DNA from: a virus
DNA: 64,000 bases
Virus record (IMG/VR): IMGVR_UViG_3300047552_002060
Span: 20,775-84,774 of that record
Strand: one strand, 5' to 3'
Position numbers and translations under genes: made by a program. Below are positions 7,208 through 58,213 of this stretch, in pieces. A model generated the notes under the pieces. It saw nothing but the letters and a program-made list of their open reading frames with translations. It was not told the DNA's origin and did not search any database. The stretch's first letter is position 1, and the number at the start of each line of letters is the position of its first letter.

Positions 7208-7316
7208 CTGTTGAGTATGTGAGCCATCTTAGATGGCATAAGAAAAAAGACCACGACATTGACCGAATCGCACGTTACCAACTGTCTTTACTTCTTTTAT
7301 CATATCCTCAATCTTT

Positions 7317-7571
7317 ATGCCGATACGTATATTCTTTTTAAGCCAATTGAATAATCGAGTCCAACGTGGAGAATTGTCTCAAGGATGGCATTCGTGTTGG
7401 GCATTACTTAAATTCTTAACCTCTCTTAAACAGATTAAGTTGATAACTCCATCAACTTGGGATTCTGCTTATAGAGATGTTTGTGCTGTTTGGCAGGATT
7501 CAAAGCGAGCATTTAAATATGAAACAAAACAAAAAGAAATCTTACACACCACCTTCGAAACCTCTTCGTGA
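7317..7571 (+). CDS. small aromatic-rich protein, 84 aa (tiny-protein family candidate)
   Basis: The core reads CWALLKFLTSLKQIKLI, then STWDSAYRDVCAVW. This resembles the tiny proteins at 25153 and 25356 (W.xY..D...F..R after a hydrophobic helix). No good ribosome-binding site is seen. It overlaps the next gene. The call rests on that pattern and is tentative. Confidence 0.45.
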   Translation: MPIRIFFLSQLNNRVQRGELSQGWHSCWALLKFLTSLKQIKLITPSTWDSAYRDVCAVWQDSKRAFKYETKQKEILHTTFETSS

Positions 7572-14863: not shown

Positions 14864-14940
14864 TTGACTTGGTTCTATCTTAAGAATAGAGAGAGCAGCT
14901 AAAGAGCTGCTAAGTTCTGGTTCAAGTCCAGAGAGTCGAG
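14864..14940 (+). tRNA. tRNA-like sequence, degenerate (AAA at anticodon position)
   Basis: Ends pair as TTGACTT/GAGTCGA with two wobble pairs. The T arm TCTGG TTCAAGT CCAGA is perfect. The anticodon-like arm is GCAGC TAAAGA GCTGC (six-base loop). U8 and the D-loop GG are missing, and a CTAT/ATAG hairpin stands in the D-arm place. It is probably a decayed tRNA or a tRNA mimic. Confidence 0.45.
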
Positions 14941-15007
14941 TCAGTTCAATCACAGACGAATGGGTGACACAGAGTTGCACCCTACGGTGGGTCTTAATGG
15001 AGCATAT

Positions 15008-24685: not shown

Positions 24686-25156
24686 ATGAAAGAAATTGTA
24701 TTAAATGGCAAGTATGCTAATGGTCGAAAGGCCCTAATAGATGATCAAGATTATGACAATCTAACCGACCATTCGTGGTCTGTTGGTAGCAATGGTTATC
24801 CACGGTGTACTCATGAACAAAAACAATTTCTTATGCATGACTTCATCATGCCGCCGGTTCCCGGCATGATGGTTGATCACATTAACCAAAATAAGCTAGA
24901 CAATCGTCGAGATAATTTACGGTATGTGACTAAGTCGCAGAATATGACCAATCGCCCGAAGCAAAAGAATAATACGTCTGGAAATAAGGGAGTTTATTAC
25001 CTTAAATCAGGCAATAGGAGTAGGCGTTGGTTCGCTAAATTCAAGTTTAATGGAAGGTTTTATCAGTCTGAATATGTAGCTACAAAGGACGAAGCAGTTA
25101 AACTTTATGAGCAATTGGCTTCTAAATATCAAGGTCAATACAAATCGACGGTATGA
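24686..25156 (+). CDS. HNH endonuclease with AP2 DNA-binding domain
   Basis: The HNH core MVDHINQNKLDNRRDNLRYV (about 69-89) is followed by NTSGNKGVYY...RWFAKFKFNGR, the AP2/ERF-like domain that commonly trails phage HNH homing endonucleases. Complete at 156 residues. Such free-standing enzymes cut phage DNA and spread their own gene. Downstream begins a run of tiny genes of unusual composition. Confidence 0.88.
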   Translation: MKEIVLNGKYANGRKALIDDQDYDNLTDHSWSVGSNGYPRCTHEQKQFLMHDFIMPPVPGMMVDHINQNKLDNRRDNLRYVTKSQNMTNRPKQKNNTSGNKGVYYLKSGNRSRRWFAKFKFNGRFYQSEYVATKDEAVKLYEQLASKYQGQYKSTV

Positions 25157-25359
25157 CATATCGTAATATTTACTATATTCAAGATAATACAAAAAATCAT
25201 AAAGAAGATGAAGTCTATGTACACATGGCACGCTTCTTTTGTTTGTGCGACTCTCTGTTCTCGACTCAATGCAAATCTTGGAATTTTTATGTAAGTGATC
25301 TTTTAAAGTTCGCTAAACGATATAGCAGAAGACCTGCAAGGCAGGAACATCAACTATGA
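25153..25359 (+). CDS. tiny aromatic-rich protein, 68 aa (family member)
   Basis: It starts at an ATGA overlap with the HNH gene. After a polar N-terminus the core is ARFFCLCDSLFS, then KSWNFYVSDLLKFAKRYSRR. The W.xY.SDL..F..R(Y/W) part matches the next gene and the one at 7317. No known family. Confidence 0.6.
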   Translation: MTYRNIYYIQDNTKNHKEDEVYVHMARFFCLCDSLFSTQCKSWNFYVSDLLKFAKRYSRRPARQEHQL

Positions 25360-25574
25360 TCAAACTTGCGGATATGATTAAACTTACAGATATAAGGTCT
25401 TTGCTGCCTCTCTCCCACAAAGAAAAATGGGAGAGAGTTCATGGTGCAATTTGTGGGTTATTTACTGTAGGTGCCCATCTATTTCCAGAAATAAAGGCAT
25501 GGGACACATACTTGTCTGATCTCAGTGTTTTTACGCAGAGGTGGACCCCATATGCCCGTATCAAACAAAGGTGA
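25356..25574 (+). CDS. tiny aromatic-rich protein, 72 aa (family member)
   Basis: ATGA overlap with the preceding gene. The core VHGAICGLFTVGAHLF is followed by KAWDTYLSDLSVFTQRW, aligning closely with KSWNFYVSDLLKFAKRY of its neighbour. The two are therefore probably diverged tandem copies. Function unknown. Confidence 0.6.
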   Translation: MIKLADMIKLTDIRSLLPLSHKEKWERVHGAICGLFTVGAHLFPEIKAWDTYLSDLSVFTQRWTPYARIKQR

Positions 25575-25716
25575 AACACCAGAGCTTAAAGCTGCATGGA
25601 GATTCTTTAAAGTGGTTAATGACCTCAAGTTAGCTAATATCTTTGGCATGCTTTGGAATGTTTATCCTGTTTTAACTTTTATGGAACGTCGCAATCATGC
25701 CAGACTGCAGACTTAG
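25552..25716 (+). CDS. tiny aromatic-rich protein, 54 aa (family member)
   Basis: I use the ATG at 25552. Core AAWRFFKVVNDLKLANIFGMLW, then VLTFMERRN. It shows the helix-plus-LKL(A/G) form of the family. It overlaps both neighbours. Confidence 0.5.
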   Translation: MPVSNKGETPELKAAWRFFKVVNDLKLANIFGMLWNVYPVLTFMERRNHARLQT

Positions 25717-25921
25717 TGATTGCCTTTACCGAAATAAAAAGAAAAATGGCGGCATGCGCGCCGTGGGTGGATGTAAGTGTGATAAATGTCCACAATGTGG
25801 GTCTTACATAAGACCTACAAGACCGGAATATCACAGAGATTGGTGCTCTTATCAGTGGTGGATTCCTCCACACCATAGGGGCAAGATGACCTCTAGACCA
25901 AGTCCTCTTTTTAAAAGATAG
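25697..25921 (+). CDS. small zinc-binding protein, 74 aa
   Basis: A cluster CKCDKCPQCGSY plus CRLSDCLY and DWCSYQWW forms one or two zinc sites in a basic, unstructured background. It overlaps the end of the preceding tiny gene by 20 nt. Confidence 0.5.
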   Translation: MPDCRLSDCLYRNKKKNGGMRAVGGCKCDKCPQCGSYIRPTRPEYHRDWCSYQWWIPPHHRGKMTSRPSPLFKR

Positions 25922-25932
25922 GAGTATTAGGT

Positions 25933-26088
25933 TTGATAAATAGGGAAAGAGCCTGTCTCTTAATCACTCGGCGCTTAATAATAGTCCTATCTAGATTAGA
26001 CTTGGTTTTATATGCCACTGCGGTCAATTTAATCTTGAGCACAATCCCACTACAAAAGTTCAGTGAATCGTGGGTAAAGAAAAATTGA
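25933..26088 (+). CDS. tiny basic-hydrophobic protein, 51 aa (family candidate)
   Basis: AGGAG followed by an 8-nt spacer supports a TTG start. The peptide has a helix LLITRRLIIVLSRLDLVLYATAV and ends FSESWVKKN. The RRL..VLSRLDL stretch resembles the helix-LKL part of its neighbours. The stop overlaps the next ATG (TGATG). Confidence 0.5.
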   Translation: MINRERACLLITRRLIIVLSRLDLVLYATAVNLILSTIPLQKFSESWVKKN

Positions 26089-26258
26089 TGAAAGGTTTAA
26101 CAGCGATAGACATCGATGTTGCTGTTTTTAATTTTTTCAATATGATTTACTTGTTAAAACTTGCACCTAAGAGTTTAGCGACGAAAACAGATGTTCGCGT
26201 AGCAACAATAACAATGCGCTCGATAAATCTATTATTCCTTATGAAGGGGTTCTCTTGA
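26088..26258 (+). CDS. tiny aromatic-rich protein, 56 aa (family member)
   Basis: The ATG at 26088 overlaps the previous stop. Core VFNFFNMIYLLKLAPKSL, with the family's FF..xxLLKLA signature, then a second hydrophobic segment. Its stop overlaps the TTG start of the nucleotidase gene, so the three are coupled. Confidence 0.55.
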   Translation: MKGLTAIDIDVAVFNFFNMIYLLKLAPKSLATKTDVRVATITMRSINLLFLMKGFS

Positions 26259-26902
26259 AAATCTTAGTCGATATGGATGGAATCATAGTAGATACGCTGC
26301 CAACCTGGCTTCAGCGTATCTACTGGTGGACTGGTGTCAAAGTAAACCCAGACGATATTACTCAATGGGACCTCATCAAAGATCCAGCTTTGAGTAAGTT
26401 ACAGCCGAGTCAGATATTTGACATCCTAGATGAGAAGCATTTTACGCTCCAGTTGCCAGAGATGCCTGAGGCCACTCGATTTCTCGAAAAGTTACATGAT
26501 GCCGGCCATGAGATTAACGTTGTTACTGCTAGGTTTGGCATGAACTGTATGCCCGAGACGATCTCCTGGCTACAAGAGATGATGCCGTGGTTCAATGCTA
26601 AAAAGAAGACGTTCTTCTGCTACGACAAGCATCGAATCACAGGAGACATCCTTATCGATGACAAGGCAGAGAATCTCGTCCGGTATAATCAAGAATATCC
26701 CAACGCCAAATTGATCACGATAGACTATCCCTTTAATAAGGATACTCCCGCAGGAACCTTTCGGGCTCGTAAGGACGGATGCGAATGGGAGCAGATCGAA
26801 TTTTATATCAGAAAGAAGTTGGCGAAGCCAACCTGTTCTTGGTGTGGTGATTCAGAAGAAATGCATGGTGGAATGGGACACTCTCACCACTTTGAGGAAT
26901 AA
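26255..26902 (+). CDS. 5'(3')-deoxyribonucleotidase-like HAD phosphatase
   Basis: HAD motif I is VDMDGIIVDT (residues 4-13), motif II VTAR near 91 and motif III ILIDDK near 132. The sequence follows the NT5C (deoxyribonucleotidase) family found in many phages, which dephosphorylates dNMPs. A C-terminal tail CSWCGDSEEMHGGMGHSHH could bind a metal and is not part of the usual domain. TTG start with AAGGGG upstream. Probably adjusts nucleotide pools together with the next gene. Confidence 0.82.
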   Translation: MKILVDMDGIIVDTLPTWLQRIYWWTGVKVNPDDITQWDLIKDPALSKLQPSQIFDILDEKHFTLQLPEMPEATRFLEKLHDAGHEINVVTARFGMNCMPETISWLQEMMPWFNAKKKTFFCYDKHRITGDILIDDKAENLVRYNQEYPNAKLITIDYPFNKDTPAGTFRARKDGCEWEQIEFYIRKKLAKPTCSWCGDSEEMHGGMGHSHHFEE

Positions 26903-27631
26903 ATGAACAACTATCAAACGACACATGAAGCTTATCTAGGTACGCTGCGGGACATCTGGAACAATCCAGACTATAAGACCGCACCTCGTGGGTTGCCCAT
27001 TCGAGAGAAGGTCGATTATTCTTTTAAGGTGGAAAACCCAACGTCTGAGCCAATCAAGACAGCCAATCTAGAGAGGAATAAGGTCATTGAAGACTACACA
27101 CGACAAGAGGTCATACTATACAACTCAGGCACTAATAAAACTGCTGACTTTGCTAAAGCTAGTAAGTTTTGGGAAAAGTTATCGAATCCGGACGGGACTA
27201 TCAATTCGGCTTATGGATTCTTAATCTGGAGGAACTACAGTTGTACGAGTAAATTTAGTGATCGAGCTATGACTCCATGGGAGTGGGCATGTGAATCACT
27301 ATTGGCCGATAAGGATACACGTCAAGCTGTGATGCATTTTGCTAAGGACGAGCATAAGTGGCTAGGTAATAAAGATCAGGTCTGTACCCTTACAGGCAAT
27401 TGGCTGATTCGAGACAACAAGTTAAATTTAACAATTGTGATGAGGTCGAACGACGTAGTCAAAGGACTCGTGTACGATCTTCCTTGGTTCTGCAGTTTGA
27501 TGGATAAGATGCTAGAAGACCTAAAGCCTCAATATCCTGACTTACAAAAGGGTAAGTATACGCATATTGCCCACTCTATGCATGCATACGAGAAGGATGC
27601 GGATGGCATCTTGAAGATGCTAGGAGACTAG
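26903..27631 (+). CDS. thymidylate synthase-fold enzyme, likely dCMP hydroxymethylase type
   Basis: The TS fold is clear: NSAYGFLIW (101-109), DTRQAVMHF (138-146), catalytic Cys161, then R181-S-N-D184 exactly 20 residues after the Cys as in E. coli TS, and HIAHSMHAYEKD near the C-terminus. The position equal to TS Asn177, which selects dUMP, is Asp192 (VYDL). The same Asn-to-Asp change marks T4 dCMP hydroxymethylase, so dCMP is the likely substrate and 5-hydroxymethyl-dCMP the likely product. The catalytic loop reads CTLT rather than PCH. A methylase acting on another pyrimidine remains possible. Confidence 0.78.
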   Translation: MNNYQTTHEAYLGTLRDIWNNPDYKTAPRGLPIREKVDYSFKVENPTSEPIKTANLERNKVIEDYTRQEVILYNSGTNKTADFAKASKFWEKLSNPDGTINSAYGFLIWRNYSCTSKFSDRAMTPWEWACESLLADKDTRQAVMHFAKDEHKWLGNKDQVCTLTGNWLIRDNKLNLTIVMRSNDVVKGLVYDLPWFCSLMDKMLEDLKPQYPDLQKGKYTHIAHSMHAYEKDADGILKMLGD

Positions 27632-28354
27632 ATGAGTCAAGAAAAAATAGAATTAGATATCTTTCAACAAGACATTGTCAGAGGCACCGATCTAGAGTTT
27701 AAACAACTGCTAGATATTCAAAAAGAATTAGAGCAGTTTAAGATCGGGGACATCTACATACGAGAAGTTTTCTACAAATATGCCGGGTCATCTGAGATAG
27801 AAAAGACGAACCACAACGTAGTAGCGAAATACAAAGTCATTCACGTATCTCCGCTCGGCATTCCTTGGCTTAGGAAGATTGGTAGTAATGGTAAACTGAC
27901 AGGGAATATATGTACTATACAGCACATCAACGATCTTATCAACGGAATGAAGCGTGACCATAGTCCATATGGTTCAGAAGACAAATTTGTGCCCGATCCT
28001 GCCCAATTAGATGCGATTCTTTTACAGCAAGACTTTAATCCGGTTGAGGAGGCTCAAATTAAAGCAAAACTGTTCAATGAGATCAACAAACACAATAAGA
28101 GGGTGGCAATTAATACCAGACCTAACAAACCTGATGTAGCTGATTTTTTTAAGAACTCGAAGCCAGGTGACAAATTCTGGACCTCACCTGATGTCTTTTT
28201 CGTGATTCAATCGGTAGTCAAGGGTGCTGGTCAGTGGATCATCACCGTACTTGACGTAAATCAAACTACTGTAACATTTAACTTTAGCAGCTTCAACTTT
28301 AAACGTCTATATAGAGAGCAGCCACGATCATTCGCAAAAGAAAATAAGATATGA
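27632..28354 (+). CDS. hypothetical protein, 240 aa, paralogue of 32398-33132
   Basis: It shares with the 244-residue protein at 32398 the landmarks F.IGD..IRE, a G....R....NG.. element, a FV.DP block near 120 and a K.GD.FW block near 175. The two evidently arose by duplication. No catalytic motif is evident. It overlaps the next small gene (ATGA). Confidence 0.72.
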   Translation: MSQEKIELDIFQQDIVRGTDLEFKQLLDIQKELEQFKIGDIYIREVFYKYAGSSEIEKTNHNVVAKYKVIHVSPLGIPWLRKIGSNGKLTGNICTIQHINDLINGMKRDHSPYGSEDKFVPDPAQLDAILLQQDFNPVEEAQIKAKLFNEINKHNKRVAINTRPNKPDVADFFKNSKPGDKFWTSPDVFFVIQSVVKGAGQWIITVLDVNQTTVTFNFSSFNFKRLYREQPRSFAKENKI

Positions 28355-28527
28355 ATAAGTGCCACTTAACAATTCAAAGTTGCTATGGCAAACGCAAGAT
28401 AGGACGCAAAATTTGGTATCTTCGTCATCACGGCCCAAGTCCATACTGTAATGACCCCGAAAATAAAAAAGCCAATAAGACAACTTGGCGTATTTTTTGG
28501 CATGCCTTACAAACTCAAACTCTCTAA
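28351..28527 (+). CDS. small basic Cys/His protein, 58 aa
   Basis: An ATGA overlap supports the start. Residues C4, H5, C11, H26, H27, C33 and a Trp-rich C-terminus (KTTWRIFWHALQ) could form a small metal-binding fold. Function unknown. Confidence 0.55.
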   Translation: MNKCHLTIQSCYGKRKIGRKIWYLRHHGPSPYCNDPENKKANKTTWRIFWHALQTQTL

Positions 28528-28589
28528 ACAACTTTATTTTTATTGAAGCAGACAAATCCGAATTAATATATTCTCACAAGGAGATGTGC

Positions 28590-29039
28590 ATGTCAACTGT
28601 TCCAAATGTGACCCCAGCGTTGCCAGTGAACGAAGTATCAGCCGAAGAGAAGGAGTTTCTCGCGGAAGCTGAGGTGATGGATCTTAGTCCGATTAAGGGA
28701 AAGACCTATATGGTTGCAGTGGGTACAGGTGATCCCAATAAGGTCAAATTTCTCTGTTCGACGGTACATGGACCATACGACTTCACTGAGATGTGTCAGG
28801 AGGTTGGCGAGACTTGGGTTCAGCACCAGCATCACGCTAAGGTCGTAATTCTTGAGAAGGACCCAAAGAAGAAGGTCCTCCTACTTGATGCTAACACCAT
28901 TGACTACATTGAAGCTCACTATGTTGACATCATCATGGAAGAGACTCTAGCCTCATTTGAGGACAAGGAATTTACTTGTGTGGCAGGAACTATTACAGAT
29001 GCTGAAGTTGATCCGACGACCGGTCAGCAGGTAAAATAA
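28590..29039 (+). CDS. hypothetical protein, 149 aa
   Basis: AAGGAG six bases before the ATG at 28590 sets the start. Acidic, beta-rich, no motif recognised. The strong ribosome-binding site and regular codons suggest good expression. Confidence 0.68.
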   Translation: MSTVPNVTPALPVNEVSAEEKEFLAEAEVMDLSPIKGKTYMVAVGTGDPNKVKFLCSTVHGPYDFTEMCQEVGETWVQHQHHAKVVILEKDPKKKVLLLDANTIDYIEAHYVDIIMEETLASFEDKEFTCVAGTITDAEVDPTTGQQVK

Positions 29040-29041
29040 TT

Positions 29042-29938
29042 ATGCTTAAGCATTTAGCATCTAGTCTCATTGCTCGCATTAATTCTAGTGGACGAATCAG
29101 AAAGATTGAGACGGAGCACAACGCAACTCTTAAGGAAGTTGAGCGACTACGTTGGGAGAATCGACAACTCCATAAGAACGCTTCTGAATACATGGAAGCG
29201 CGAAAAGAGGTCGAGCGGCTTACAACCCTCGTGTCAGTACTTGAGCGAGACTGCGAAGATCTCACATGTCATGCCTGCTCAAAGTGTTGTGATGCTGCCC
29301 TTGCTGATATCGAGCGTTGGAAACGCGCTGCCGTAAGCCAGAACCGTCAGTGGTCGGTGAAATGCGTGGAGGCTACAGAATTGCGTGCCGAAGTCGAGCG
29401 ACTTCAGACCGAACGCCATATGCTTGAGTTACAATTTGAGTCAGCGAAAAAAGCGACTGAGGCATGGGCGGACAAATTCGAACTTAGCGAACGAGAGCGG
29501 CTTACAGCGGAGCGCGACGAAGCCTTAGCCATGGTCGAGCGTCTGCGCGAGATTCTCAAGAACGAGATGCACGAGAGTTCGTTGGCACAGGAGCGCGACG
29601 AAGCCCGTGCCGAGGTCGAGCGGCTCACGAAGGAGGTTGGCAGAGTCATGAACGAGAAGGCGATTCAACTTGGCGCCTTGGAGGCGGAAATTACCGGCGC
29701 CCATGCCGAGATAGAGGCGCTGCTTGACGCAGTGAAAGCTTCGCATGAGACTGGGTGCTGGGGTCCGGCTGAAGACGCCTACGCTGCGTCGGGGCGTCCA
29801 GCCCTACGGCATCGGAGCGAGGTCGAGCGACTCTGCAATATCGTGAAGAACGGAGTGATTGGACCCATCAAGACTTCAGGTGAAGGAAAGACGTTAAACA
29901 ATCTGTCTACTGATAGTATTATCAAAGTTGGCCAATAG
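29042..29938 (+). CDS. coiled-coil protein, 298 aa
   Basis: Long heptad-rich stretches built round repeats of the type (E)VERL (at least six copies) with ERDEA blocks (residues 20-225), interrupted by a Cys cluster CHACSKCCDA near 80. Higher GC and repeated segments set it apart from its neighbours. Possibly a scaffold or filament-forming protein; no known family. Confidence 0.68.
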   Translation: MLKHLASSLIARINSSGRIRKIETEHNATLKEVERLRWENRQLHKNASEYMEARKEVERLTTLVSVLERDCEDLTCHACSKCCDAALADIERWKRAAVSQNRQWSVKCVEATELRAEVERLQTERHMLELQFESAKKATEAWADKFELSERERLTAERDEALAMVERLREILKNEMHESSLAQERDEARAEVERLTKEVGRVMNEKAIQLGALEAEITGAHAEIEALLDAVKASHETGCWGPAEDAYAASGRPALRHRSEVERLCNIVKNGVIGPIKTSGEGKTLNNLSTDSIIKVGQ

Positions 29939-29961
29939 AAGTTAATGATCTTGAACATCGT

Positions 29962-30165
29962 ATGGATTGCAAAGATAATTCTCTAGTCCCTGGTCTCAAG
30001 AAAGCGATTAAAATTGTCGACAACAGATTAGCTACCGCCAAAGCCTTAGACTGTGGCGAAGAGTTTACAGGTGCTATGGAACAGATTCAAGTCTTCTTGA
30101 AAGCCGAACTTTGGCGTCAAGAAAACCCTGAAGAAGCTAAGAAATCATCGACTGTCCTAGATTAG
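29962..30165 (+). CDS. hypothetical helical protein, 67 aa
   Basis: Two helices (GLKKAIKIVDNRLATAKAL, MEQIQVFLKAELWRQE) separated by DCGEEF. Ends just before the tRNA-Lys gene. Function unknown. Confidence 0.55.
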   Translation: MDCKDNSLVPGLKKAIKIVDNRLATAKALDCGEEFTGAMEQIQVFLKAELWRQENPEEAKKSSTVLD

Positions 30166-30170
30166 CAGTT

Positions 30171-30243
30171 GGGACCGTAGCTCAGTTGGTAGAGCAGGAA
30201 ACTTTTAATTTCAAGGTCGTGGGTTCAAGTCCCACCGGTCCCA
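30171..30243 (+). tRNA. tRNA-Lys (anticodon TTT)
   Basis: Cloverleaf: acceptor GGGACCG/CGGTCCC, D stem GCTC/GAGC with GG in the loop, seven-base anticodon loop CTTTTAA, T arm GTGGG TTCAAGT CCCAC, discriminator A. The outermost anticodon-stem pair is mismatched. CCA is not encoded. tRNA-Lys(TTT) is a known target of host anticodon nucleases such as PrrC. Confidence 0.93.
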
Positions 30244-30347
30244 TTATGTTTAAAATATCTTCCACTACGCGTTCGTCGAACTCGCGGTCTAAATGATTTC
30301 ACTATGACTGTTTTTCGTTTCTTTACCTTTCTAAATTGGCTTGGACT

Positions 30348-30599
30348 ATGCTCAAAAAGACACCTAATGTAGAGTATGATATCAACAAGCGTTGGGAACG
30401 CGGAACGACCCACCATCCTAAGTCTATCGCCTTGTTGAAGCGTGTTGATGAGCTTGACTGGGAACTACTTAAGGGACATTTCGACTTCAAGACTGGCGGC
30501 GATGGGGATAATGGTGAGACGTTGATGTATCTGCTGGATATTTACTTCGAGGAGCAAGATGCCACCAAAGAAAAAGAAAGCAAGAAGCGAAAAACCTGA
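30348..30599 (+). CDS. hypothetical protein, 83 aa
   Basis: Start taken at ATG 30348. Contains ELDWELLKGHFDF and an acidic middle, with a basic C-terminus KEKESKKRKT. No clear ribosome-binding site. A tiny open frame at 30304-30372 overlaps its start (see findings). Confidence 0.55.
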   Translation: MLKKTPNVEYDINKRWERGTTHHPKSIALLKRVDELDWELLKGHFDFKTGGDGDNGETLMYLLDIYFEEQDATKEKESKKRKT

Positions 30600-30750
30600 G
30601 CCGCAACAAGTTGAAGTGATCATTAAGGTTGTTCACGAATATAAGCCAGTTGAACACGATAATCAATACAAGCAAAGTCATCCAGACGAATATGAGTGGT
30701 CAAATTTCTGGAATGATTGGGTTCCGAAGTCTTATTTCTCTGGACGATAA
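30559..30750 (+). CDS. hypothetical protein, 63 aa
   Basis: Good GAGGAGC ribosome-binding site; overlaps the previous gene by 41 nt. Basic Pro/Lys-rich N-terminus, then a Trp/Tyr-rich end (EYEWSNFWNDWVPKSYF). Function unknown. Confidence 0.55.
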   Translation: MPPKKKKARSEKPEPQQVEVIIKVVHEYKPVEHDNQYKQSHPDEYEWSNFWNDWVPKSYFSGR

Positions 30751-30752
30751 AT

Positions 30753-30956
30753 ATGAAGATAACACAATGGATTCGCTGTTACAACTCTAAAAATGACGAA
30801 CTAGTGGATGAATGGCTCCTACATGAATTTGAGGATCTTCCTGAATATTGGGAAGAGTGTCTTCCTATTGAGCATCCAGTGGCCTGTGTCCTCTTAGGTA
30901 AGTGCTTGAATGAGCGATTTCGTAAATACTTTCTAGAAATGGAAGCTGAACGATAG
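30753..30956 (+). CDS. hypothetical acidic protein, 67 aa
   Basis: The ATG at 30753 lies 2 nt after the preceding stop, which fits the tight packing here. Contains WLLHEFEDLPEYWEECLP. No recognised family. Confidence 0.6.
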   Translation: MKITQWIRCYNSKNDELVDEWLLHEFEDLPEYWEECLPIEHPVACVLLGKCLNERFRKYFLEMEAER

Positions 30957-31430
30957 ATGACTAGTCTGATAACATATCTGATCTGCCTCATTCCTTACGA
31001 TACTAAAGTCTCTACATGGCCACTCAGTGGCCTAAATAGGGAATTGATGGGTATCGCTCGCTTAGAGTCATATTATGGAACTTACACTGACCATGAACCT
31101 CATATTCGTGGTCCATTCCATACAGCTTTTGGGTCATTAGGATTAAAGCCGATTACGGCCCATGATCAGTATATGAAGTCACCTAAGCTACAGAAGCAAT
31201 TTCCTGGTCTACAAGATGAACAAGTATTTCTGCGAGAATTCTGGCGTAATCGAACGCTCTACACCCAGTGTGCGAACTTCCATTGGTGGTATTTGCGACA
31301 CGTAACTCCAACACTCGAGCGAGCAGTCTACTCTTGGCGCTGGGGACTTACAGCAAGTAATCAAGCCGCGGATGAGCAGATTGCCGCAGATACTTATACA
31401 ATTCAATATATAGAATTGGATAAGCACTGA
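30957..31430 (+). CDS. possible lysozyme/transglycosylase-like protein, 157 aa
   Basis: A short hydrophobic N-terminus precedes GIARLESYYGTYTDHE, where the Glu could be the catalytic acid of a lysozyme-like fold. A RGPFHTAFGSLGLKP segment follows, and a YSWRWGL near the end recalls the AYN.G-type element of lytic transglycosylases. The similarity is loose. If correct, the enzyme cuts host peptidoglycan. No holin lies next to it; the two membrane proteins at 34.8-35.5 kb are candidates. Confidence 0.45.
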   Translation: MTSLITYLICLIPYDTKVSTWPLSGLNRELMGIARLESYYGTYTDHEPHIRGPFHTAFGSLGLKPITAHDQYMKSPKLQKQFPGLQDEQVFLREFWRNRTLYTQCANFHWWYLRHVTPTLERAVYSWRWGLTASNQAADEQIAADTYTIQYIELDKH

Positions 31431-31648
31431 TGCACATTACGGACATACATAAAGCTTGTTGGCGATTTTGGTATACTATAGGTGAATTAAAGTTGGGCAA
31501 CATGGCTGACTTTATTTATCGCGTTGATATTAGAGGCCGTCATCGCCTTCACCATCCTAATTATGATTATGTAATAAACTTCGATATACGACATTATAGG
31601 ACAACTATTCACTATGCCCCTCTTAAATCGTATTCCAGTATTAGATAA
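31430..31648 (+). CDS. tiny aromatic-rich protein, 72 aa (family member)
   Basis: Start overlaps the previous stop (TGATG). Core ACWRFWYTIGELKLGNMADF, a clear aromatic helix-LKLG signature, then a His/Arg/Tyr-rich tail. Unknown function. Confidence 0.58.
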   Translation: MHITDIHKACWRFWYTIGELKLGNMADFIYRVDIRGRHRLHHPNYDYVINFDIRHYRTTIHYAPLKSYSSIR

Positions 31649-32156
31649 AGGTTTCGTAGCGACCTACGATACCTCCTGTAACAGCGACAAGTTGAATGAG
31701 CTTGCTGTCGAGTTCTATAAACGACTCGATGGCAAGTTTTTATGTGAAAATAGTACACTGACGGTGATGATGAAATGCCCACTGTTCATTCAACTTAATC
31801 TTTCGCAGTTCAACTTACGAATCACCAACCTGCCGAATGTCGGCTCTGATGAACTCGAGAGCTACTATCCCAATGTCGGAGAGATCGGCTCCAGTGATCT
31901 ACGTGTCTGTCAGGATATCTCGGACGACATGAAACGCACATCCATTGCCCTACTGATGAATCACAAAGCTTATCAAGCAGATGGATGTAATCGCTTCATG
32001 TCTCAAATTCTAACGCCTATCAACACTTATACGACCATTCTCGTTCATGGAATGTATAATGATTGGAGCAGGTTTGTATCGCAGGGAAATGCACCAGCTC
32101 CGATTGCTGCATATATGCAAGCAGTGGACCAATTAATTAAAGCAGAGTGGCGATGA
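31614..32156 (+). CDS. degenerate ThyX-like protein
   Basis: It aligns along most of its length with flavin-dependent thymidylate synthase: VLDKGFV at the N-terminus, KCPLFIQ (for KAPIFV), DELESYY (for NELSGRY), then ILTPINTYT (for the VLPLNLYT core) and a final long helix. The signature RHRxxS that holds FAD and dUMP is replaced by FNLRIT (66-71), and the His/Gln of the later helix are lost. It probably does not make dTMP. It might bind nucleotides, assist the TS-fold enzyme, or have a new activity. Confidence 0.65.
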   Translation: MPLLNRIPVLDKGFVATYDTSCNSDKLNELAVEFYKRLDGKFLCENSTLTVMMKCPLFIQLNLSQFNLRITNLPNVGSDELESYYPNVGEIGSSDLRVCQDISDDMKRTSIALLMNHKAYQADGCNRFMSQILTPINTYTTILVHGMYNDWSRFVSQGNAPAPIAAYMQAVDQLIKAEWR

Positions 32157-32398
32157 AAAAAAATAAAGACCCAAAAGAACCAGAACTATCAGAAGTATAT
32201 GAGACCGAGATTGAGTTCACGTGTCCAGTCCGTGGGCTAGTCAAGCAGAAAGTTAAAGTGAAGAGATATAAGAGCGTATCTAATCAGCCAGTCGAGGATA
32301 TCTTGCCTAGCAAAAACATAGCAGACAAGCTCGATCAAAAATATTCAGGCTTAATACTCGAGGATGAGAGTGTGGACTTATTAGACGGAGAGGGCTAA
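32153..32398 (+). CDS. hypothetical protein, 81 aa
   Basis: The ATG at 32153 overlaps the previous stop (ATGA). Lys/Glu-rich ends with a beta-like centre (IEFTCPVRGLVKQKVKVKRY). Coupled to the next gene by TAATG. Confidence 0.6.
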   Translation: MKKNKDPKEPELSEVYETEIEFTCPVRGLVKQKVKVKRYKSVSNQPVEDILPSKNIADKLDQKYSGLILEDESVDLLDGEG

Positions 32399-33132
32399 TG
32401 AAGTACGACATTACGCAAGATGACAAAGATATAATGGAGTTCGACTTTAAACATGATCGCACTCTCAAGCACCTCCGCAACTTATCATTTTACAAGTTCT
32501 CGATTGGTGATGTTTTGATCCGCGAAGAAAAATACCGCACAGATGGAAAGGATCAGTGGAGAGTGAAGGTAGCCGATTGCGGATTACCCAATAAATATCT
32601 CTACGCATATGAAAATTCTCTTGGAGTTGGATACATCAGAAGATTGAGCATAAATGGAAGAAAGTTTGTCGACAAGGCGACCTGTGTGACACAGTTTGAC
32701 CCCGATCAAACACGCTTTGTCCTAGATCCTGAGTATGCCGACCACATGCTTCTAGCGTCAGAGAATGATGACTTCGATGCTAAGTCGCGCTACGACGATA
32801 TTAAGAAGAAGAAAGAGAAGGTCAATCGCCAAAACAAAAAGATGCGTACCACTTTTGTGGATGAGGCAGCAGTCAAGAATTGGATGAAGACTTTGAAGAG
32901 GGGAGATCAGTTTTGGTTTAGTCATTCTCTAAGTCGAATCTCCAAGAATCCATATGTCATCGACGCAATTCACCTTGATATCCGGCGGCAGAGTCTATGG
33001 AATAACACCGAGACCATATCCTACGTGTCGGTAACAGGCGGGAATTATAATACGCAGCTGTATCCATCATCGTTTATAACAGGCTATCTCTTTCTCTCGA
33101 GACCTACTTTTGCCGATGAGGTCATATCTTGA
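32398..33132 (+). CDS. hypothetical protein, 244 aa, paralogue of 27632-28354
   Basis: Shares the F.IGD..IRE, R....NG, FV.DP and K.GD.FW landmarks with its paralogue and has a Lys-rich helix (KKKKEKVNRQNKKM) in the middle. No enzyme motif. The TTG start of dCMP deaminase overlaps its stop. Confidence 0.72.
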   Translation: MKYDITQDDKDIMEFDFKHDRTLKHLRNLSFYKFSIGDVLIREEKYRTDGKDQWRVKVADCGLPNKYLYAYENSLGVGYIRRLSINGRKFVDKATCVTQFDPDQTRFVLDPEYADHMLLASENDDFDAKSRYDDIKKKKEKVNRQNKKMRTTFVDEAAVKNWMKTLKRGDQFWFSHSLSRISKNPYVIDAIHLDIRRQSLWNNTETISYVSVTGGNYNTQLYPSSFITGYLFLSRPTFADEVIS

Positions 33133-33590
33133 CAAGGCTACCTACAAAAAAGCTTATTCACTTAAACAATCGTGCGATTGCTATCGCAGAACAGTCGCAT
33201 GATATTCATACTAAAGTAGCAGCACTATTGGTTAATCCACAAACTCTAGCAGTGTCATCTGATGGCTTCAATGGCTTTGTTAGAGAAGCTCCAGATACGA
33301 TTCTTCCTACTGAGAGACCAGAAAAGTATGATTACCTTATTCACGCAGAAGAAAATCTGCTCTGTAATGCTGTAAGGAATGGGGTGAAGACCGATGGCTG
33401 TTTTATCTATGTGAGTATTTCGCCCTGTACAAAATGCCTGCGACTGATGTGGCAAGCAGGAATTAGGGAGTTCTACTTTAAAGAGAAGTATAGAGATTTC
33501 GATAAATGTACTTCTATGCTTGACCTACAAGTTGATTTAAGCTTAGAAGATGGCTTCTATCATATGCTAGTAAGTAGTCGCAAACCATGA
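33129..33590 (+). CDS. deoxycytidylate deaminase
   Basis: Zinc deaminase with IHAEENLLCNA (His/Glu, about 73-83) and SPCTKC (about 98-103), plus the N-terminal HTKVAALLV strand. It converts dCMP to dUMP. The TTG start overlaps the previous stop (TTGA). In this neighbourhood it would link cytosine and thymine pools with the TS-fold enzyme and the nucleotidase. Confidence 0.85.
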   Translation: MTRLPTKKLIHLNNRAIAIAEQSHDIHTKVAALLVNPQTLAVSSDGFNGFVREAPDTILPTERPEKYDYLIHAEENLLCNAVRNGVKTDGCFIYVSISPCTKCLRLMWQAGIREFYFKEKYRDFDKCTSMLDLQVDLSLEDGFYHMLVSSRKP

Positions 33591-33916
33591 GACCTCTTAG
33601 AGAACGACAGATAGTCAACGGAAGAAGGTCCTCTAAGGAAGAACGAGAAAGAGCCGAGCAATCGAGGCTCTTTCTAGAAGAGAAATACCGCTGTGCTCGT
33701 AAGATCTTCTGGGTATTATGGCGTCTTATGCTATATAGCCATTCAGAGAATGTGCTATTCGGACCAACTTATTTAGCCGACCGACTCACTCAAAAACACA
33801 CATTTGGAACTTATGACCAATATAGGCCAGAGAGAGGCTCGAGGATGCTTGACCCGAATAGCGTATGTGATTGTCCGACTTGGTTTAGCAAATCCATGGA
33901 AGTGGACAGCCATTGA
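33587..33916 (+). CDS. tiny-protein family member with extended ends, 109 aa
   Basis: ATGA overlap with dCMP deaminase. A basic N-terminus (RPLRERQIVNGRRSS) leads into YRCARKIFWVLWRLMLYSHSE, the aromatic helix of the family, then VLFGPTYLADRL. The last 30 residues overlap the next gene in another frame, so the end could be affected by a frameshift. Confidence 0.5.
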   Translation: MRPLRERQIVNGRRSSKEERERAEQSRLFLEEKYRCARKIFWVLWRLMLYSHSENVLFGPTYLADRLTQKHTFGTYDQYRPERGSRMLDPNSVCDCPTWFSKSMEVDSH

Positions 33917-33992
33917 TAGATATGAAAGACAGAGTATTTTTTTGGAAAGACATCTTAAGGTGCTTCGAAATGTCACAAGACCTCACTACTAG
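33813..33992 (+). CDS. tiny-protein family member, 59 aa
   Basis: Core CLTRIAYVIVRLGLANPW, then WTAIDRYERQSIFLERH, matching the helix-L.LG(A) plus W/Y pattern. The overlap with the previous gene is long (104 nt), so a later start such as TTG 33849 is possible. Confidence 0.45.
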   Translation: MTNIGQREARGCLTRIAYVIVRLGLANPWKWTAIDRYERQSIFLERHLKVLRNVTRPHY

Positions 33993-34161
33993 ACGCCAGA
34001 TGCTCTTAAGAGCAAGTGCCGGACTCATCAATGTATTCGCGCAGATCCTGTTGTCAGTAGGAGTAGCGTCGTGGTCCGCCGTGAGTGGATATTGGAGCTT
34101 ATGCGATTTTGTAGATAGAAATGACAAATATGTCACTAAGAATATTATTAATAGGAAGTAA
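33970..34161 (+). CDS. tiny-protein family member, 63 aa
   Basis: Start chosen at ATG 33970 to limit overlap. Core LINVFAQILLSVGVASWSAV, then GYWSLCDFVDR. Third member in a row, which argues for tandem duplication with fast divergence. Confidence 0.45.
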   Translation: MSQDLTTRRQMLLRASAGLINVFAQILLSVGVASWSAVSGYWSLCDFVDRNDKYVTKNIINRK

Positions 34162-34582
34162 TCCGTCGACCGCGTCATCAACAGACGAGGCGTTCTCTGC
34201 AGATACGGTCTCGGGAAGAGTGGTTAGATCGTGGATTCAGGGGATAGATGGCACGATCTTATTCGATAATATCGTATCCCAGATCACGAAAAACAACCGC
34301 CCTCTGCATCCAAATGAAATAATGTGTGCATCGGAATCCCTCTTAGAGAGAATCAATAGGATTGATCCTGATCGTTTGATCGCTCTCGGAAAGAGCGCTG
34401 CTTGGGCTCTCAATGAGCTAAAGCTTAATTTTTTAGAGATGCCACATCCGTCGGGACTCAACAGAAAGTTGAATGATAAGGCTTATGTCACTGAGAAACT
34501 TGAGTTACTTAGAGCGTATTGCAAATCAGAGAAGATACCACTTCTTCATCACCGTACTAGCACAATTAGAACTTATAAGTGA
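34133..34582 (+). CDS. uracil-DNA-glycosylase-superfamily protein
   Basis: ILLIGSNPS (motif 1 region) opens the protein, LIALGKSAA lies in the middle and MPHPSGLNRK near the end matches the HPS motif of UDG family 4-like proteins. At 149-153 residues it is a minimal domain. A start at 34121 is possible. It might excise uracil or another base arising from the phage's cytosine metabolism, or act as a non-catalytic binder. Confidence 0.68.
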   Translation, partial: SLRILLIGSNPSTASSTDEAFSADTVSGRVVRSWIQGIDGTILFDNIVSQITKNNRPLHPNEIMCASESLLERINRIDPDRLIALGKSAAWALNELKLNFLEMPHPSGLNRKLNDKAYVTEKLELLRAYCKSEKIPLLHHRTSTIRTYK

Positions 34583-34633
34583 CCCTACATATTTGTCAGT
34601 CACAGACAATTTCTTCAAATTTATGTTCAAAAA

Positions 34634-34774
34634 ATGACCAGCTTATATGACCGGCGTTACTTAGCTATATCTAGCTTCTATAGATGCTTGGCCCTATTGA
34701 AGTTAGGCGATAACAATACTCTCTGGGGGAGTTATAGTCGTTTCTATGGCAAGTATCGACAAATACTCTACTGA
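34634..34774 (+). CDS. tiny-protein family member, 46 aa
   Basis: MTSLYDRRYLAI, then SFYRCLALLKLGDNNTLW and SYSRFYGKYRQ: the most compact example of the family, helix-LKLG followed by W...Y...Y..R. It ends in a 7-nt convergent overlap with the next gene. The ribosome-binding site is weak. Confidence 0.5.
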   Translation: MTSLYDRRYLAISSFYRCLALLKLGDNNTLWGSYSRFYGKYRQILY

Positions 34775-43972: not shown

Positions 43973-45194
43973 TATCGTCCTCGCTCTTCTTTAGTGACTT
44001 CTTTTCAGGTTTAGGTGGATTTTTGGCTTCCGCGAGTCTTTGTTCGTGTTTAATGCCGCCGATTTCAGACTTTTGCTTCATTTGCTCTTTAAGTTGTACT
44101 TCCATCATCTTGAGCTTAAGCTCATGCTCACGCTTCTTAAACTCAAGTTCCATCTTTACTTCTTCCTTGCGGAGTTGTAACTCTAATTTCTTCTTCTCCA
44201 CTTCAAGCATCTTCATCTGATGGTTGGCTTCTGCGTCACCTTCAGAACCATCGGAGCCTTCAGCTTCCTTCTTGGCCTTCTCGTATTCCAAATCAAGCAT
44301 GCGCTTCTTGTGCTCTTGCTCAATGGCCTGAGGATTGGCTTGCTGTGCTTGCTGATATTCAATATCAGACATTCTCTGCTTGTGGGCGGCATCTTGATCT
44401 ACAAGAGAGTGTTTCTTCTGAGCCTGTTCAAACTCAAGGTCAGACATGCGCTTCTTGTGTTCGCGCTCCATAGCCATCGACTGCTCGTGATGGGCTCGTT
44501 CCATTTCAGCCATCTTTGACGCATTATCTAAATCTAGATTAGACATCGCTGAGGTAGCCTGAGCCTTTGCCTGCTTAGTAGCATCGACCTCCGGAGCATG
44601 ATGACCGTGTACAATATAGGCTATCTCTTGATCAGAATAGCCCTCTTCCTCGAGAGCATCGATCAATTCTTGCGGATCAGCTTTACCAGCTTCGACTTGT
44701 TCCTGCAGTTGCTCATCTTCAGGAGACAATTGAGGTTCGCCTCCTGAAGGATCTTGCTCGGGCTCACCAGGTTGTTCCGGTTGCGCTTCTTGACCATCTG
44801 ACACTGCTTCGGGTGGACCTTGATCACCTTCAGCCTCAGGGGGAAGTTCTTGTGGTTGCTGTTCTGATTCTTCTCCACCTTCAGGTTGTAGTTCTTGCTG
44901 TAGAGCAGCGGCAACATCGCCTCCCTCTTGAGGTTGCTGTGGCTGCTCTTGACCTTCTTGACTACCTGACACTGCTTCAGGTTGGGCTTGGGATTCTTCG
45001 TCTCCACTCATCTCATCTTCAAGACTCATAAAGGCCTTTTCGTGGTTTAAGGCCTTCTTTAGAGTTGCCCAACGGTTAGGCAAACCCGTTTTCTTTTTCT
45101 TTTTGGGAACTTTATTCAATACTTCTTTTCCAGGAACAATTTCCTGTTTTCCATCAGGAGAAACCTCAATTATCTTTTCATTAAACTGCGACAT
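43965..45194 (-). CDS. acidic, low-complexity and coiled-coil protein, 409 aa
   Basis: After a basic start (VPKKKKKTG), residues 60-185 are almost wholly Gln/Glu/Pro/Gly and probably disordered. Residues 190-390 are a long charged helix with at least three copies of EHKKRM.DLE(Y/F)E. The layout recalls tail- or head-assembly scaffolds; packaging inside the capsid is possible. No enzyme motif. Confidence 0.65.
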   Translation of the reverse strand: MSQFNEKIIEVSPDGKQEIVPGKEVLNKVPKKKKKTGLPNRWATLKKALNHEKAFMSLEDEMSGDEESQAQPEAVSGSQEGQEQPQQPQEGGDVAAALQQELQPEGGEESEQQPQELPPEAEGDQGPPEAVSDGQEAQPEQPGEPEQDPSGGEPQLSPEDEQLQEQVEAGKADPQELIDALEEEGYSDQEIAYIVHGHHAPEVDATKQAKAQATSAMSNLDLDNASKMAEMERAHHEQSMAMEREHKKRMSDLEFEQAQKKHSLVDQDAAHKQRMSDIEYQQAQQANPQAIEQEHKKRMLDLEYEKAKKEAEGSDGSEGDAEANHQMKMLEVEKKKLELQLRKEEVKMELEFKKREHELKLKMMEVQLKEQMKQKSEIGGIKHEQRLAEAKNPPKPEKKSLKKSEDDNE

Positions 45195-45414: not shown

Positions 45415-45424
45415 AATATCTATT

Positions 45425-54457: not shown

Positions 54458-54623
54458 TATACAATAGTGGTAAAGAATCTCAACCTTATCTACTTCTATG
54501 CCGCGAGCTTGGTTATCGCTGCAGGTGCTCGTACGAATTCATAATAAGATTATACCACAGTGAATAATTTTAGTTTATAAAGAATATATCGAAACCGCAT
54601 CATTCTATGTTTATTAGACATTT

Positions 54624-54776
54624 TTACTTAAAATTCCGCGATAATTGCTGCCAATAAATCATCTTAAGCCAATTATCATTCATATTAGCTGAATTCTCAT
54701 TCAACCCCAGTTTCCAAAGTAACCAAAAGAAATCTTGAATAATAAGACGATCACTCCATTTCCACCAAATTTTCAT
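54624..54776 (-). CDS. tiny aromatic-rich protein, 50 aa (family member)
   Basis: The ATG at 54776 gives MKIWWKWSDRLIIQDFFWLLWKLGLNENSANMNDNW as its main part, here described in pieces: WWKWSD, FFWLLWKLGL, then NWLKMIYWQQLSRNF. It is the only minus-strand member of the helix-LKL(G) family and lies directly downstream of a tRNA gene. Confidence 0.5.
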   Translation of the reverse strand: MKIWWKWSDRLIIQDFFWLLWKLGLNENSANMNDNWLKMIYWQQLSRNFK

Positions 54777-54778
54777 AA

Positions 54779-56767: not shown

Positions 56768-58213
56768 TTACTTGCCTACGTTCTTGAAGAAGCAATTAAA
56801 TCTTGGTGTATACACAAAGAGGGCGCCATAAAGGACTACGGCGAACTCGAGCGCGGTTGTAACAATCGCGAAGTTGATCTTGCTTAGAGGAGCTAGCTGC
56901 TTGAACCGCATGTTCTCTGCGCTCATGTCGAGTAGGAATGCCTCGCCGAGACCAGGGAGCTTCGCACCTGCGCAGATGTAGTTACCTGCGCCGACGTTCG
57001 CCCAGTTACCTGCGAACTTCTCGGTACCAGCCGCACCACCTGGTGCGCTAACATAAAGCTTCCAGCTCTTCACACCAGCAGGAACGCTGCTGATCGCGCA
57101 CTGAATGTTCTGACCAAGGGTTAGAGTAACAGCCGCTGAAGCGACAGGCGCTGACTCACCGGAGTCATTAACCGCAGTGACCTTGACCTGGTAAGTACCA
57201 GCCGCGAAGGTTGAACCTGAACCAGTCGCAGTAGCAGTTACCGCAAAAGTTGAAGCAGGAGCTGCTGTGCCGCTTGCCTGCGCGCGCACGCCAGTGCGAG
57301 GACGTAGGAAGAGGTTAGGCTTGAGATCGATCGCGCCAGCAGTGGTCTGAATCTTCGAGACGTCGTAGCCAACAGTCTGTGAAGCAAGACCGGGAGCTGA
57401 ACGGAACTGAGGATAGAACTGCCTAACGAACGCTGAGATCGCTGCGGGCTCTGCGTGTAGCTCGCTGGGTGAACCGAAGTTCTCGAGAGCAATAACTGCT
57501 AGTGCCTCGACATCATCCTGGGCCATAACCGCGCCAGCAAGATCCTGACCGATTGAGCTGGTCGTACCATACCCGTTAAAGTCGCCAGAGATCATCTGCG
57601 CGTCGGTGTCGCCCTTTAGGAGCTGCTTTAGGAGACCGGACATCGCGATTGAGCTTGAGGGAAGATCAGCATCAGCACCAGTCATAGCACCAGTCGTCTG
57701 GTTCTGATAGTGTGCATGACCCCAGTATAGCTCGCGCTCAACATTCTTTAGAAGGTGCATAGTACCCTCTTTCGCCTGCTGCGCAACGATATCACCGACA
57801 GTGACACGAACAAGTGTCATCTGATGTGATACGCGTCGACGGGTGCCGAAGAATACGATCTTCTGCCCGTCACGTACGTAGGTCGAATCTTCCTCTTGGG
57901 GCGCACCACCCTCACCGATATAAGGAGCTGAGTCGCTGCCGTACGAAATTAGACGATTGTACTGCTCGAACAAGTTGTAAGCCTTATCAACGCTAACCGC
58001 GGGCCACATCTTGAGGTTCTTCATGTCAAACGTAACGCTCTTTAGAGTCGTCTCGAGTGATTCAGCCTGGAGGACGCCACCATAGGTGAGGTCGGTAGGC
58101 TTACCAGCACCGCCGTAACCTGCAGTGATGGCCTTGTTAAGTGCCTCGACTTCAGCCGCTGTGACGAGACCGGACTCGAGACCCTGTAATACTTGGTTAA
58201 TTGTGTCGTTCAT
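56768..58213 (-). CDS. major capsid protein
   Basis: A 481-residue protein directly downstream of the scaffold gene, strongly terminated and with the regular codon use of a highly expressed gene. It contains a long N-terminal arm, an RRRVSHQMTLVRV segment, and an inserted Ig/fibronectin-like domain at about 325-395 (AGTYQVKVTAVNDSGESAPVAS) that should stick out from the capsid. The HK97-type fold is inferred from position, length and layout. Its N-terminal AITAGYGGAGKPTD is echoed in the polyprotein at 59542. Confidence 0.8.
   Translation of the reverse strand: MNDTINQVLQGLESGLVTAAEVEALNKAITAGYGGAGKPTDLTYGGVLQAESLETTLKSVTFDMKNLKMWPAVSVDKAYNLFEQYNRLISYGSDSAPYIGEGGAPQEEDSTYVRDGQKIVFFGTRRRVSHQMTLVRVTVGDIVAQQAKEGTMHLLKNVERELYWGHAHYQNQTTGAMTGADADLPSSSIAMSGLLKQLLKGDTDAQMISGDFNGYGTTSSIGQDLAGAVMAQDDVEALAVIALENFGSPSELHAEPAAISAFVRQFYPQFRSAPGLASQTVGYDVSKIQTTAGAIDLKPNLFLRPRTGVRAQASGTAAPASTFAVTATATGSGSTFAAGTYQVKVTAVNDSGESAPVASAAVTLTLGQNIQCAISSVPAGVKSWKLYVSAPGGAAGTEKFAGNWANVGAGNYICAGAKLPGLGEAFLLDMSAENMRFKQLAPLSKINFAIVTTALEFAVVLYGALFVYTPRFNCFFKNVGK

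What the first reader, a model, noticed from the sequence alone, without database searches (positions are those of the whole stretch)
25153..34774. Scattered family of tiny aromatic-rich proteins with a helix-LKL(G/A) signature
Members I can see: 7317, 25153, 25356, 25552, 25933, 26088, 31430, 33587, 33813, 33970 and 34634 (+), and 54624 (-). A fragment at 30304-30372 (FRFFTFLNWLGL) may be another. They share an aromatic helix (such as FYRCLALLKLG, FWYTIGELKLG, FFNMIYLLKLA, FFWLLWKLGL, IAYVIVRLGLA), then a W/Y segment ending in basic residues (WDTYLSDLSVF, WNFYVSDLLKF, WDSAYRDVCAVW). Several are in tandem and coupled by stop/start overlaps. Fast-diverging tandem copies in an accessory region suggest proteins under selection against host factors. 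No known family matches in my memory.
Basis: partly seen in the sequence, partly recalled or inferred. Interest (0 to 1): 0.82.

Follow-up and report, generated by a model that had tools for sequence, protein, structure and literature searches.

The report
Phage microproteins sharing one helix
A group of uncultured phages carries dozens of tiny, fast-changing proteins built around one shared short helix, and some of them also carry snippets resembling phage shell and tail proteins, which suggests an undescribed tool for interfering with, or protecting, virus particle assembly.

Summary
Its core is an 18-residue helix motif, L-L-x-[LFV]-L-x-[KR]-L-[GKN]-[LIV]-x-[ST]-A. It occurs in 152 of 936 small proteins of this phage clade against 9.4 expected, is concentrated outside large-gene footprints (36 outside, 0 inside at score 24 or more), and is under purifying selection. 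No database family matches.

Two features lie outside the window. First, a single-copy member overlaps the portal gene's end in 30 related loci and has a confidently predicted small fold without a known match. Second, about 14-18 members join the helix to a peptide resembling a virion protein: capsid N-arm (4), a second capsid segment (4), tail-sheath N-terminus (2), a tube-like protein (1), a 1200-aa structural protein (3), fibre pieces. Similar bodies carry different peptides. All 13 that could be checked are co-oriented with virion genes.

Structure and selection are shown. Function is inferred: most likely interference with virion assembly of co-infecting relatives; next, decoys for defences that sense virion proteins.

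The parts
7317..7571 (+). 84-aa motif ORF (WALLKFLTSLKQIKLITP), just 3' of tRNA-Asn 7135-7208
   Evidence: 13.6 bits, 0/1000 shuffles; for the tRNA
25153..25359 (+). 68-aa ORF coupled to the preceding gene; W..Y..DL segment; helix motif not significant
   Evidence: 3.2 bits, 57/1000; member by position and coupling only
25356..25574 (+). 72-aa ORF; positional counterpart in relative G001 (L002:1278-1466, LFPEI..WD.Y.S) but helix motif not significant
   Evidence: dN 0.81, dS 1.9
25552..25716 (+). 54-aa motif ORF (WRFFKVVNDLKLANIFGM)
   Evidence: 9.8 bits, 5/1000
25933..26088 (+). 51-aa motif ORF, TTG start (RRLIIVLSRLDLVLYATA); BLAST-linked to the cluster that holds the portal-coupled members
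   Evidence: 16.7 bits, 0/1000
26088..26258 (+). 56-aa motif ORF (FNFFNMIYLLKLAPKSLA)
   Evidence: 11.6 bits, 11/1000
30304..30372 (+). 22-aa minimal motif ORF (MTVFRFFTFLNWLGLCSKRHLM), just 3' of tRNA-Lys
   Evidence: 19.2 bits, 0/1000
31430..31648 (+). 72-aa ORF (FWYTIGELKLG), weak member
33587..33916 (+). 109-aa motif ORF (RKIFWVLWRLMLYSHSEN), coupled to the deaminase-like gene upstream
   Evidence: 12.4 bits, 1/1000
33804..33992 (+).
   Evidence: 4/1000; 16/41 identical, dS saturated
33970..34161 (+). 63-aa ORF, motif not significant
   Evidence: 58/1000
34473..34637 (+).
   Evidence: 17.9 bits, 0/1000
34634..34774 (+). 46-aa ORF (FYRCLALLKLG) in the same slot as L002:10700/10936 tiny ORFs
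   Evidence: 96/1000, member by position only
54624..54776 (-). 50-aa motif ORF (QDFFWLLWKLGLNENSAN) starting just 3' of tRNA-Ser 54778-54853; ortholog L090:2002-2136 also 3' of a tRNA-Ser
   Evidence: 20.7 bits, 0/1000; 28/43 identical, dN 0.23, dS 2.3
54550..54621 (-). 23-aa second minimal motif ORF in tandem (MSNKHRMMRFRYILYKLKLFTVV); relative L003:12263-12397
56768..58213 (-). major capsid protein, the reference for two of the peptides (N-arm about 45-75; segment about 236-268)
   Evidence: PHROG major head protein, 3.6e-52; SPO1 Gp6.1, PDB 9vel

Best explanation
A clade of large, uncultured, distantly SPO1-like phages (probably of Bacteroidota) carries a multi-copy family of 20-110 aa microproteins built on one helix (LLxLLxKLGIxSA), often followed by a second short helix. 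One copy is translationally coupled to the portal gene and looks like the conserved founder. The rest are accessory, tandem and fast-diverging. A subset joins the helix to a 15-40 aa peptide resembling a virion protein and lies in the head or tail gene blocks. Proposed mechanism: the peptide docks where the real virion segment would bind (for example a neighbouring capsid or sheath subunit), the helix supplies a common second contact or oligomerisation, and the product caps or poisons particle assembly of co-infecting related phages. Shown: the motif, its selection, the core member's coupling and predicted fold, the peptide similarity, body/peptide swapping, and co-orientation. Inferred: docking, poisoning, and that competitors are the target.
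For: Motif in 152 of 936 small proteins vs 9.4 expected, and 36 outside vs 0 inside large genes at score 24 or more. dN well below dS. Virion-peptide similarity: 10 motif ORFs with E<=1e-3 against 538 large-protein families vs 0 of 276 shuffled (one of the 10 is a plain homologue of a 133-aa protein, another a zinc-ribbon match). Four of 133 motif small ORFs vs 0 of 685 non-motif small ORFs match virion families at E<=1e-3. Profile-profile with capsid: E 3e-11, probability 97% and E 1.6e-4, probability 50%. The peptides keep amino acids but not codons, so they are not fresh DNA copies. Same body with different peptides, and the same locus with different peptides. In all 12 cases with data the phage's own virion protein is not the best match; for three of the four N-arm peptides it ranks 75-82 of 97 and for the fourth about 50 of 97. 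Portal-coupled member in 30 loci.
Against: No function was tested. Most motif ORFs carry no recognisable virion peptide, including every one in the window. The peptides are so conserved among relatives that self and non-self barely differ, and some matches rest on 13-20 residues. Co-orientation with the phage's own virion genes suggests expression together with them, which also fits decoy or own-assembly roles. No phage-encoded weapon of this kind was found in the papers searched.
Confidence: 0.36

Rival explanations
1. Anti-defence decoys. The peptides mimic the virion segments that host defence sensors recognise and occupy those sensors without triggering them, made at the same time as the real virion proteins.
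For: Bacterial defences do sense newly made virion proteins: CapRel binds major capsid protein and has Bacteroidetes representatives (PMC9712102), the Gol peptide of the T4 capsid protein activates Lit (same paper), and DSR2 senses tail tube (PMC11087589). The peptides come from capsid, sheath and tube-like proteins. They are co-oriented with virion genes, so probably co-expressed with the triggers. Variable complement and fast divergence fit an arms race.
Against: A self-decoy should resemble the phage's own protein most closely, which was not seen. It does not explain why one helix is shared by all members, or the many members without a virion peptide.
Confidence: 0.24
2. Own-morphogenesis cofactors. 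The portal-coupled member and its relatives are small assembly chaperones or minor virion proteins, and the virion-like peptides are interaction segments used on the phage's own particles.
For: Tight overlap with the portal stop in 30 loci; location in head and tail gene blocks; conserved, confidently predicted fold.
Against: Copy number and content vary strongly between close relatives. The portal-coupled member is absent from the G000/G001 subclade and from distant relatives with the same head genes. Swapping of peptides on one body is unexpected for a housekeeping role.
Confidence: 0.22
3. General host-takeover microproteins that bind a host protein through the helix; the virion-like peptides are incidental.
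For: Most members, including those in the window, show no virion peptide and sit in accessory blocks near tRNA and nucleotide-metabolism genes.
Against: Virion-peptide matches at E<=1e-3 are confined to motif ORFs (4/133 vs 0/685), and their ORFs sit beside virion genes.
Confidence: 0.13
4. Spurious ORFs or decayed gene pieces with chance hydrophobic stretches.
For: Very short ORFs; several listed ones do not beat shuffles.
Against: dN/dS, excess outside large-gene footprints, orthologs across genomes, peptides conserved in residues but not codons.
Confidence: 0.03

Closest known systems
Capsid- and tail-sensing defences and their triggers (CapRel with major capsid protein; Lit with the T4 Gol peptide; DSR2 with tail tube)
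   Same: Short or whole virion proteins act as recognised signals; capsid and tube are recurrent targets
   Different: Those are host sensors reacting to real virion proteins. Here the phage encodes separate microproteins carrying virion-like peptides; no sensor was identified
Phage anti-defence proteins such as DSAD1 against DSR2
   Same: Small phage-encoded accessory proteins, possibly countering a virion-protein sensor
   Different: No sequence relation was shown or tested; here there are dozens of paralogs with one helix and exchangeable peptides
Satellite capsid-interference proteins (P4 Sid, PICI Cpm proteins, PLE TcaP), from general knowledge
   Same: Small proteins acting on the capsid assembly of another phage
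   Different: To my knowledge they are not chimeras with capsid peptides and do not share this helix, and they are encoded by satellites; relation not tested here
SPO1-type phages
   Same: Distantly related capsid (about 30% identity) and, from general knowledge, many small accessory genes
   Different: The motif family was found only in this uncultured clade, and the capsid is the only link tested
Plakin repeat or DUF910 (YqgQ) as fold analogues of the core member
   Same: Beta-hairpin followed by two helices, or partial helix overlap
   Different: Foldseek E-values 1.5-2.8, not significant

Membership tests
Any curated family (Pfam, PHROGs) | Significant profile match of members | tested here: not met
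   Ten window ORFs and 82 motif ORFs against Pfam and PHROGs: best E 0.005, each in one member only. Core group A7 against Pfam: best E 0.007, a eukaryotic W2 domain in 3 of 17 members, not credible
This motif family (defined here) | 18-residue helix motif above shuffles of the same protein | tested here: met
152 of 936 small proteins vs 9.4 expected.
This motif family (defined here) | Protein-level selection | tested here: met
   dN 0.2-0.9 with dS 1.1-2.8 or saturated in ten ortholog groups
Virion-peptide chimeras (subset) | Peptide similar to a virion protein beyond chance, beside the motif | tested here: met
   not met for any window member
Anti-defence decoys | Relieves a named defence system | not testable with these tools
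   Needs an experiment
Satellite capsid-interference proteins (Sid, Cpm, TcaP) | Sequence or profile similarity | not tested
   Only indirectly: no credible Pfam or PHROG match at all
Plakin / DUF910 or other known folds | Significant structural match | tested here: not met
   Foldseek on a pLDDT 93.5 model: PDB E>=1.5, BFVD E>=0.3

The most novel reading that the evidence does not exclude
Phages of this clade carry a modular, evolving arsenal of microproteins in which one constant helix is combined with exchangeable peptides resembling virion proteins. The peptides select which virion protein, or which sensor of it, is engaged, giving exchangeable interference or decoying at the level of virion parts.
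Probability: 0.45. Interest if true: 0.9.

Novelty: categorically new. Interest (0 to 1): 0.72.

Why it matters
If the reading holds, phages use short virion-like peptides as interchangeable recognition elements on a common scaffold. That would give a direct handle on late-stage phage-phage conflict or on evasion of capsid- and tail-sensing immunity, and natural examples of peptides aimed at assembly interfaces. Even without the function, it turns dozens of 'hypothetical' tiny ORFs per genome into one definable family with a core member beside the portal.

Tried and rejected
RNA element rather than protein: Rfam finds only the tRNAs, the motif varies synonymously, and dN/dS is low. A terminase peptide in L010:6540 (DHFLDALRY) was dropped: E 0.02, and the segment aligns with the capsid-like segment of its ortholog L125:6895. 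The helix as a piece of capsid or another large virion protein: profile-profile comparison with 200 families found only f128, itself a motif-bearing 163-169 aa protein. An effector gene co-inherited with the motif: phylogenetic profiling gave an RNase H, a phosphatase and nucleotide-metabolism genes, nothing convincing. Cultured relatives: none by megablast; tblastn of two capsid-like peptides in known phages found nothing credible. Structure of the capsid-arm chimera: pLDDT 59, not interpretable beyond helix plus strands. Paper searches for phage-encoded virion-peptide decoys or capsid-fragment inhibitors found no description; the library lacks most subscription journals.
Full report
Setting. 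The window is bases 20,775-84,774 of an 84,774-bp IMG/VR virus record. Its major capsid protein is 67-95% identical to those of other uncultured phages, some in records of up to about 177 kb, and about 30% identical to SPO1-type capsids. The only assembled-genome hits are contigs binned as Saprospiraceae, Cytophagales and Flavobacteriaceae, so a Bacteroidota host is likely but rests on binning. The tiny ORFs have no credible match in Pfam or PHROGs.

The observation. The listed ORFs exist and several are coupled by overlapping stop/start. In the closest whole relative (G001, 172,623 bp) the same backbone genes occur in largely the same order, with other tiny ORFs in the same gaps. Positional counterparts are recognisable: 54624 with L090:2002, 25356 with L002:1278, 33813 with L002:9900, 34634 with L002:10700/10936.

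The motif. From hand-picked seeds an ungapped motif was refined by iteration on small predicted proteins. With 18 columns it finds 152 of 936 small proteins in nine records where 9.4 are expected at the shuffle threshold. Consensus: L-L-x-[LFV]-L-x-[KR]-L-[GKN]-[LIV]-x-[ST]-A. In six-frame scans 88 segments outside large-gene footprints and 5 inside reach score 20, and 36 versus 0 reach score 24 (these counts include duplicate copies of the same contigs, and 75 unique ORFs outside reach 20). An earlier 14-column version gave 101 versus 7.3, and large proteins showed no excess (32 versus 45 in shuffles). Distant relatives (capsid about 67-72%) have almost none. Counts are partly circular because the motif was refined on the same proteins; the inside/outside contrast and the shuffles, made with the same matrix, limit that concern.

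Window members. One search scores each against 1,000 shuffles. 54624, 30304, 25933 and 7317 reach 0/1000, 33587 1/1000, 33813 and 25552 4-5/1000, 26088 11/1000. 31430 is weak; 25153, 25356, 33970 and 34634 are not supported by the motif. In other genomes a W-x-[DE]-Y-M segment follows the motif (for example L132:6254, L134:14541, L125:6013), so 25153 and 25356 may be distant members; this was not tested statistically.

Real proteins. In ten ortholog groups dN is 0.2-0.9 while dS is 1.1-2.8 or saturated. For 54624 and its ortholog, 28 of 43 residues are identical, dN 0.23, dS 2.3.

Core member. One subgroup, absent from the window, overlaps or abuts the portal stop codon in 30 loci, some of which are duplicate copies of one contig. 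It is missing at that place in the G000/G001 subclade and in distant relatives. With 17 sequences AlphaFold2 gives pLDDT 93.5: strand, strand, helix (the motif), helix, strand. Foldseek finds nothing significant in PDB or BFVD. BLAST links this group to the G001 array and to window 25933.

Virion peptides. 538 profile HMMs of the clade's large proteins were searched against 276 unique motif ORFs: 10 hits at E<=1e-3 against 0 for one shuffle of each, and 13 against 3 at E<=0.01. One of the ten is a plain homologue of a 133-aa protein (L092:6488) and one a zinc-ribbon match (L134:6161); the other eight are virion or fibre-like. Capsid N-arm, the segment just after the presumed prohead cleavage site: L103:17170 (E 5e-9), L010:6540, L125:6895 and L111:7198. 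Three of these align together, and their profile matches the capsid profile with E 3e-11. A second capsid segment, about 236-268: L132:4163, L103:14731, L108:598 and L040:6117, individually weak, as a group E 1.6e-4 at only 50% probability. Tail sheath N-terminus: L116:19174 (E 2e-5) and L134:12924 (E 0.009); the sheath family itself matches PHROG tail sheath. A tube-like structural protein: L132:4744 (E 7e-6). A 1200-aa structural protein, WDPxxNGGxGxE: L009:5679 (E 6e-4), L099:19096 (E 0.025) and L013:6377 (by its similarity to the others). The names 'tube-like' and 'structural' for these two rest on position beside sheath and tail genes, not on a database match. Fibre-like pieces: L013:14912 (Gly-rich, so possibly compositional) and L009:14187 (E 0.05); L101:13238 and L145:10109 by eye only. 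Motif small ORFs match virion families at E<=1e-3 in 4 of 133 cases, non-motif small ORFs in 0 of 685.

Design. L103:17170 (G004), L116:19174 (G005) and L125:7824 (G008) share one body (PxCSCP...LLHxLLH) but carry a capsid peptide, a sheath peptide and none. L009:14187 and L013:14912 share a body with different fibre-like pieces. The peptides keep residues (65-93% to the nearest capsid) but mostly not codons (from 5/14 to 10/14 identical codons at identical residues), so they are old and kept as proteins. All 13 peptide ORFs with a virion gene on the same sequence piece are co-oriented with it, mostly between portal and capsid or upstream of the tail sheath. The phage's own protein was not the best match for any of the 12 peptides for which it was available, but the L134:12924 comparison is uninformative because the own sheath call lacks its N-terminus.

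How it may work. Best supported as a picture, not as a proven function: a common helix module plus an exchangeable peptide that engages whatever binds the real virion segment. Interference with co-infecting relatives is put first because of variable complement, swapping and the lack of preference for self. Decoying of capsid- or tube-sensing defences is a close second, because co-expression with virion genes is what a decoy needs and such sensors are known (PMC9712102, PMC11087589). Own-assembly cofactors remain possible because of the portal-coupled member.

Limits. The virion-peptide evidence comes from relatives; no window member shows it. Host, expression timing and partners are unknown. 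The literature library is open-access only.

Noticed in passing
window 14868-14942 (+): ARAGORN calls a tRNA with an odd four-base anticodon (aaag), possibly a frameshift-suppressor-like or degenerate tRNA; Rfam does not reach its threshold there.
   Followed up: no
window 59542-61650 (+), C-terminal part, and 56768-58213 (-): The 702-aa protein (its N-terminal part looks like a prohead protease, by eye) ends with a segment (ALTAGYGGAGAPT....GSVLQSES) very similar to the capsid N-terminal region around the presumed cleavage site, though it lies on the opposite strand.
   Followed up: no
window 27632-28354 and 32398-33132 (+): These two genes look like paralogs by eye (shared KIGDIYIREV / KFSIGDVLIREE start) and have counterparts in the same order in the relative L002.
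   Followed up: no
window 7135-7208, 30170-30244 (+) and 54778-54853 (-): Three of the tRNA genes are each followed closely on the same strand by a motif ORF (7317, 30304, 54776); the tRNA-Ser case is conserved in L090.
   Followed up: partly
G004 L101:3089-3580 (-), G005 L110:3442-3936 (+), G006 L137:6286-6795 (+): A 163-169 aa family carrying the same helix, the only larger multi-member protein family that matches the motif profile; its remaining part has no match.
   Followed up: partly
window 1832-2428, 24686-25156 and 45181-45438: Several HNH-type endonuclease-like genes or fragments, judged by eye, lie among the accessory and structural genes.
   Followed up: no
G000 L092:15721-16161 (+): RNase H-like gene (PHROG 1e-22) present in the motif-rich clade records and not found in the motif-poor relatives.
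   Followed up: partly
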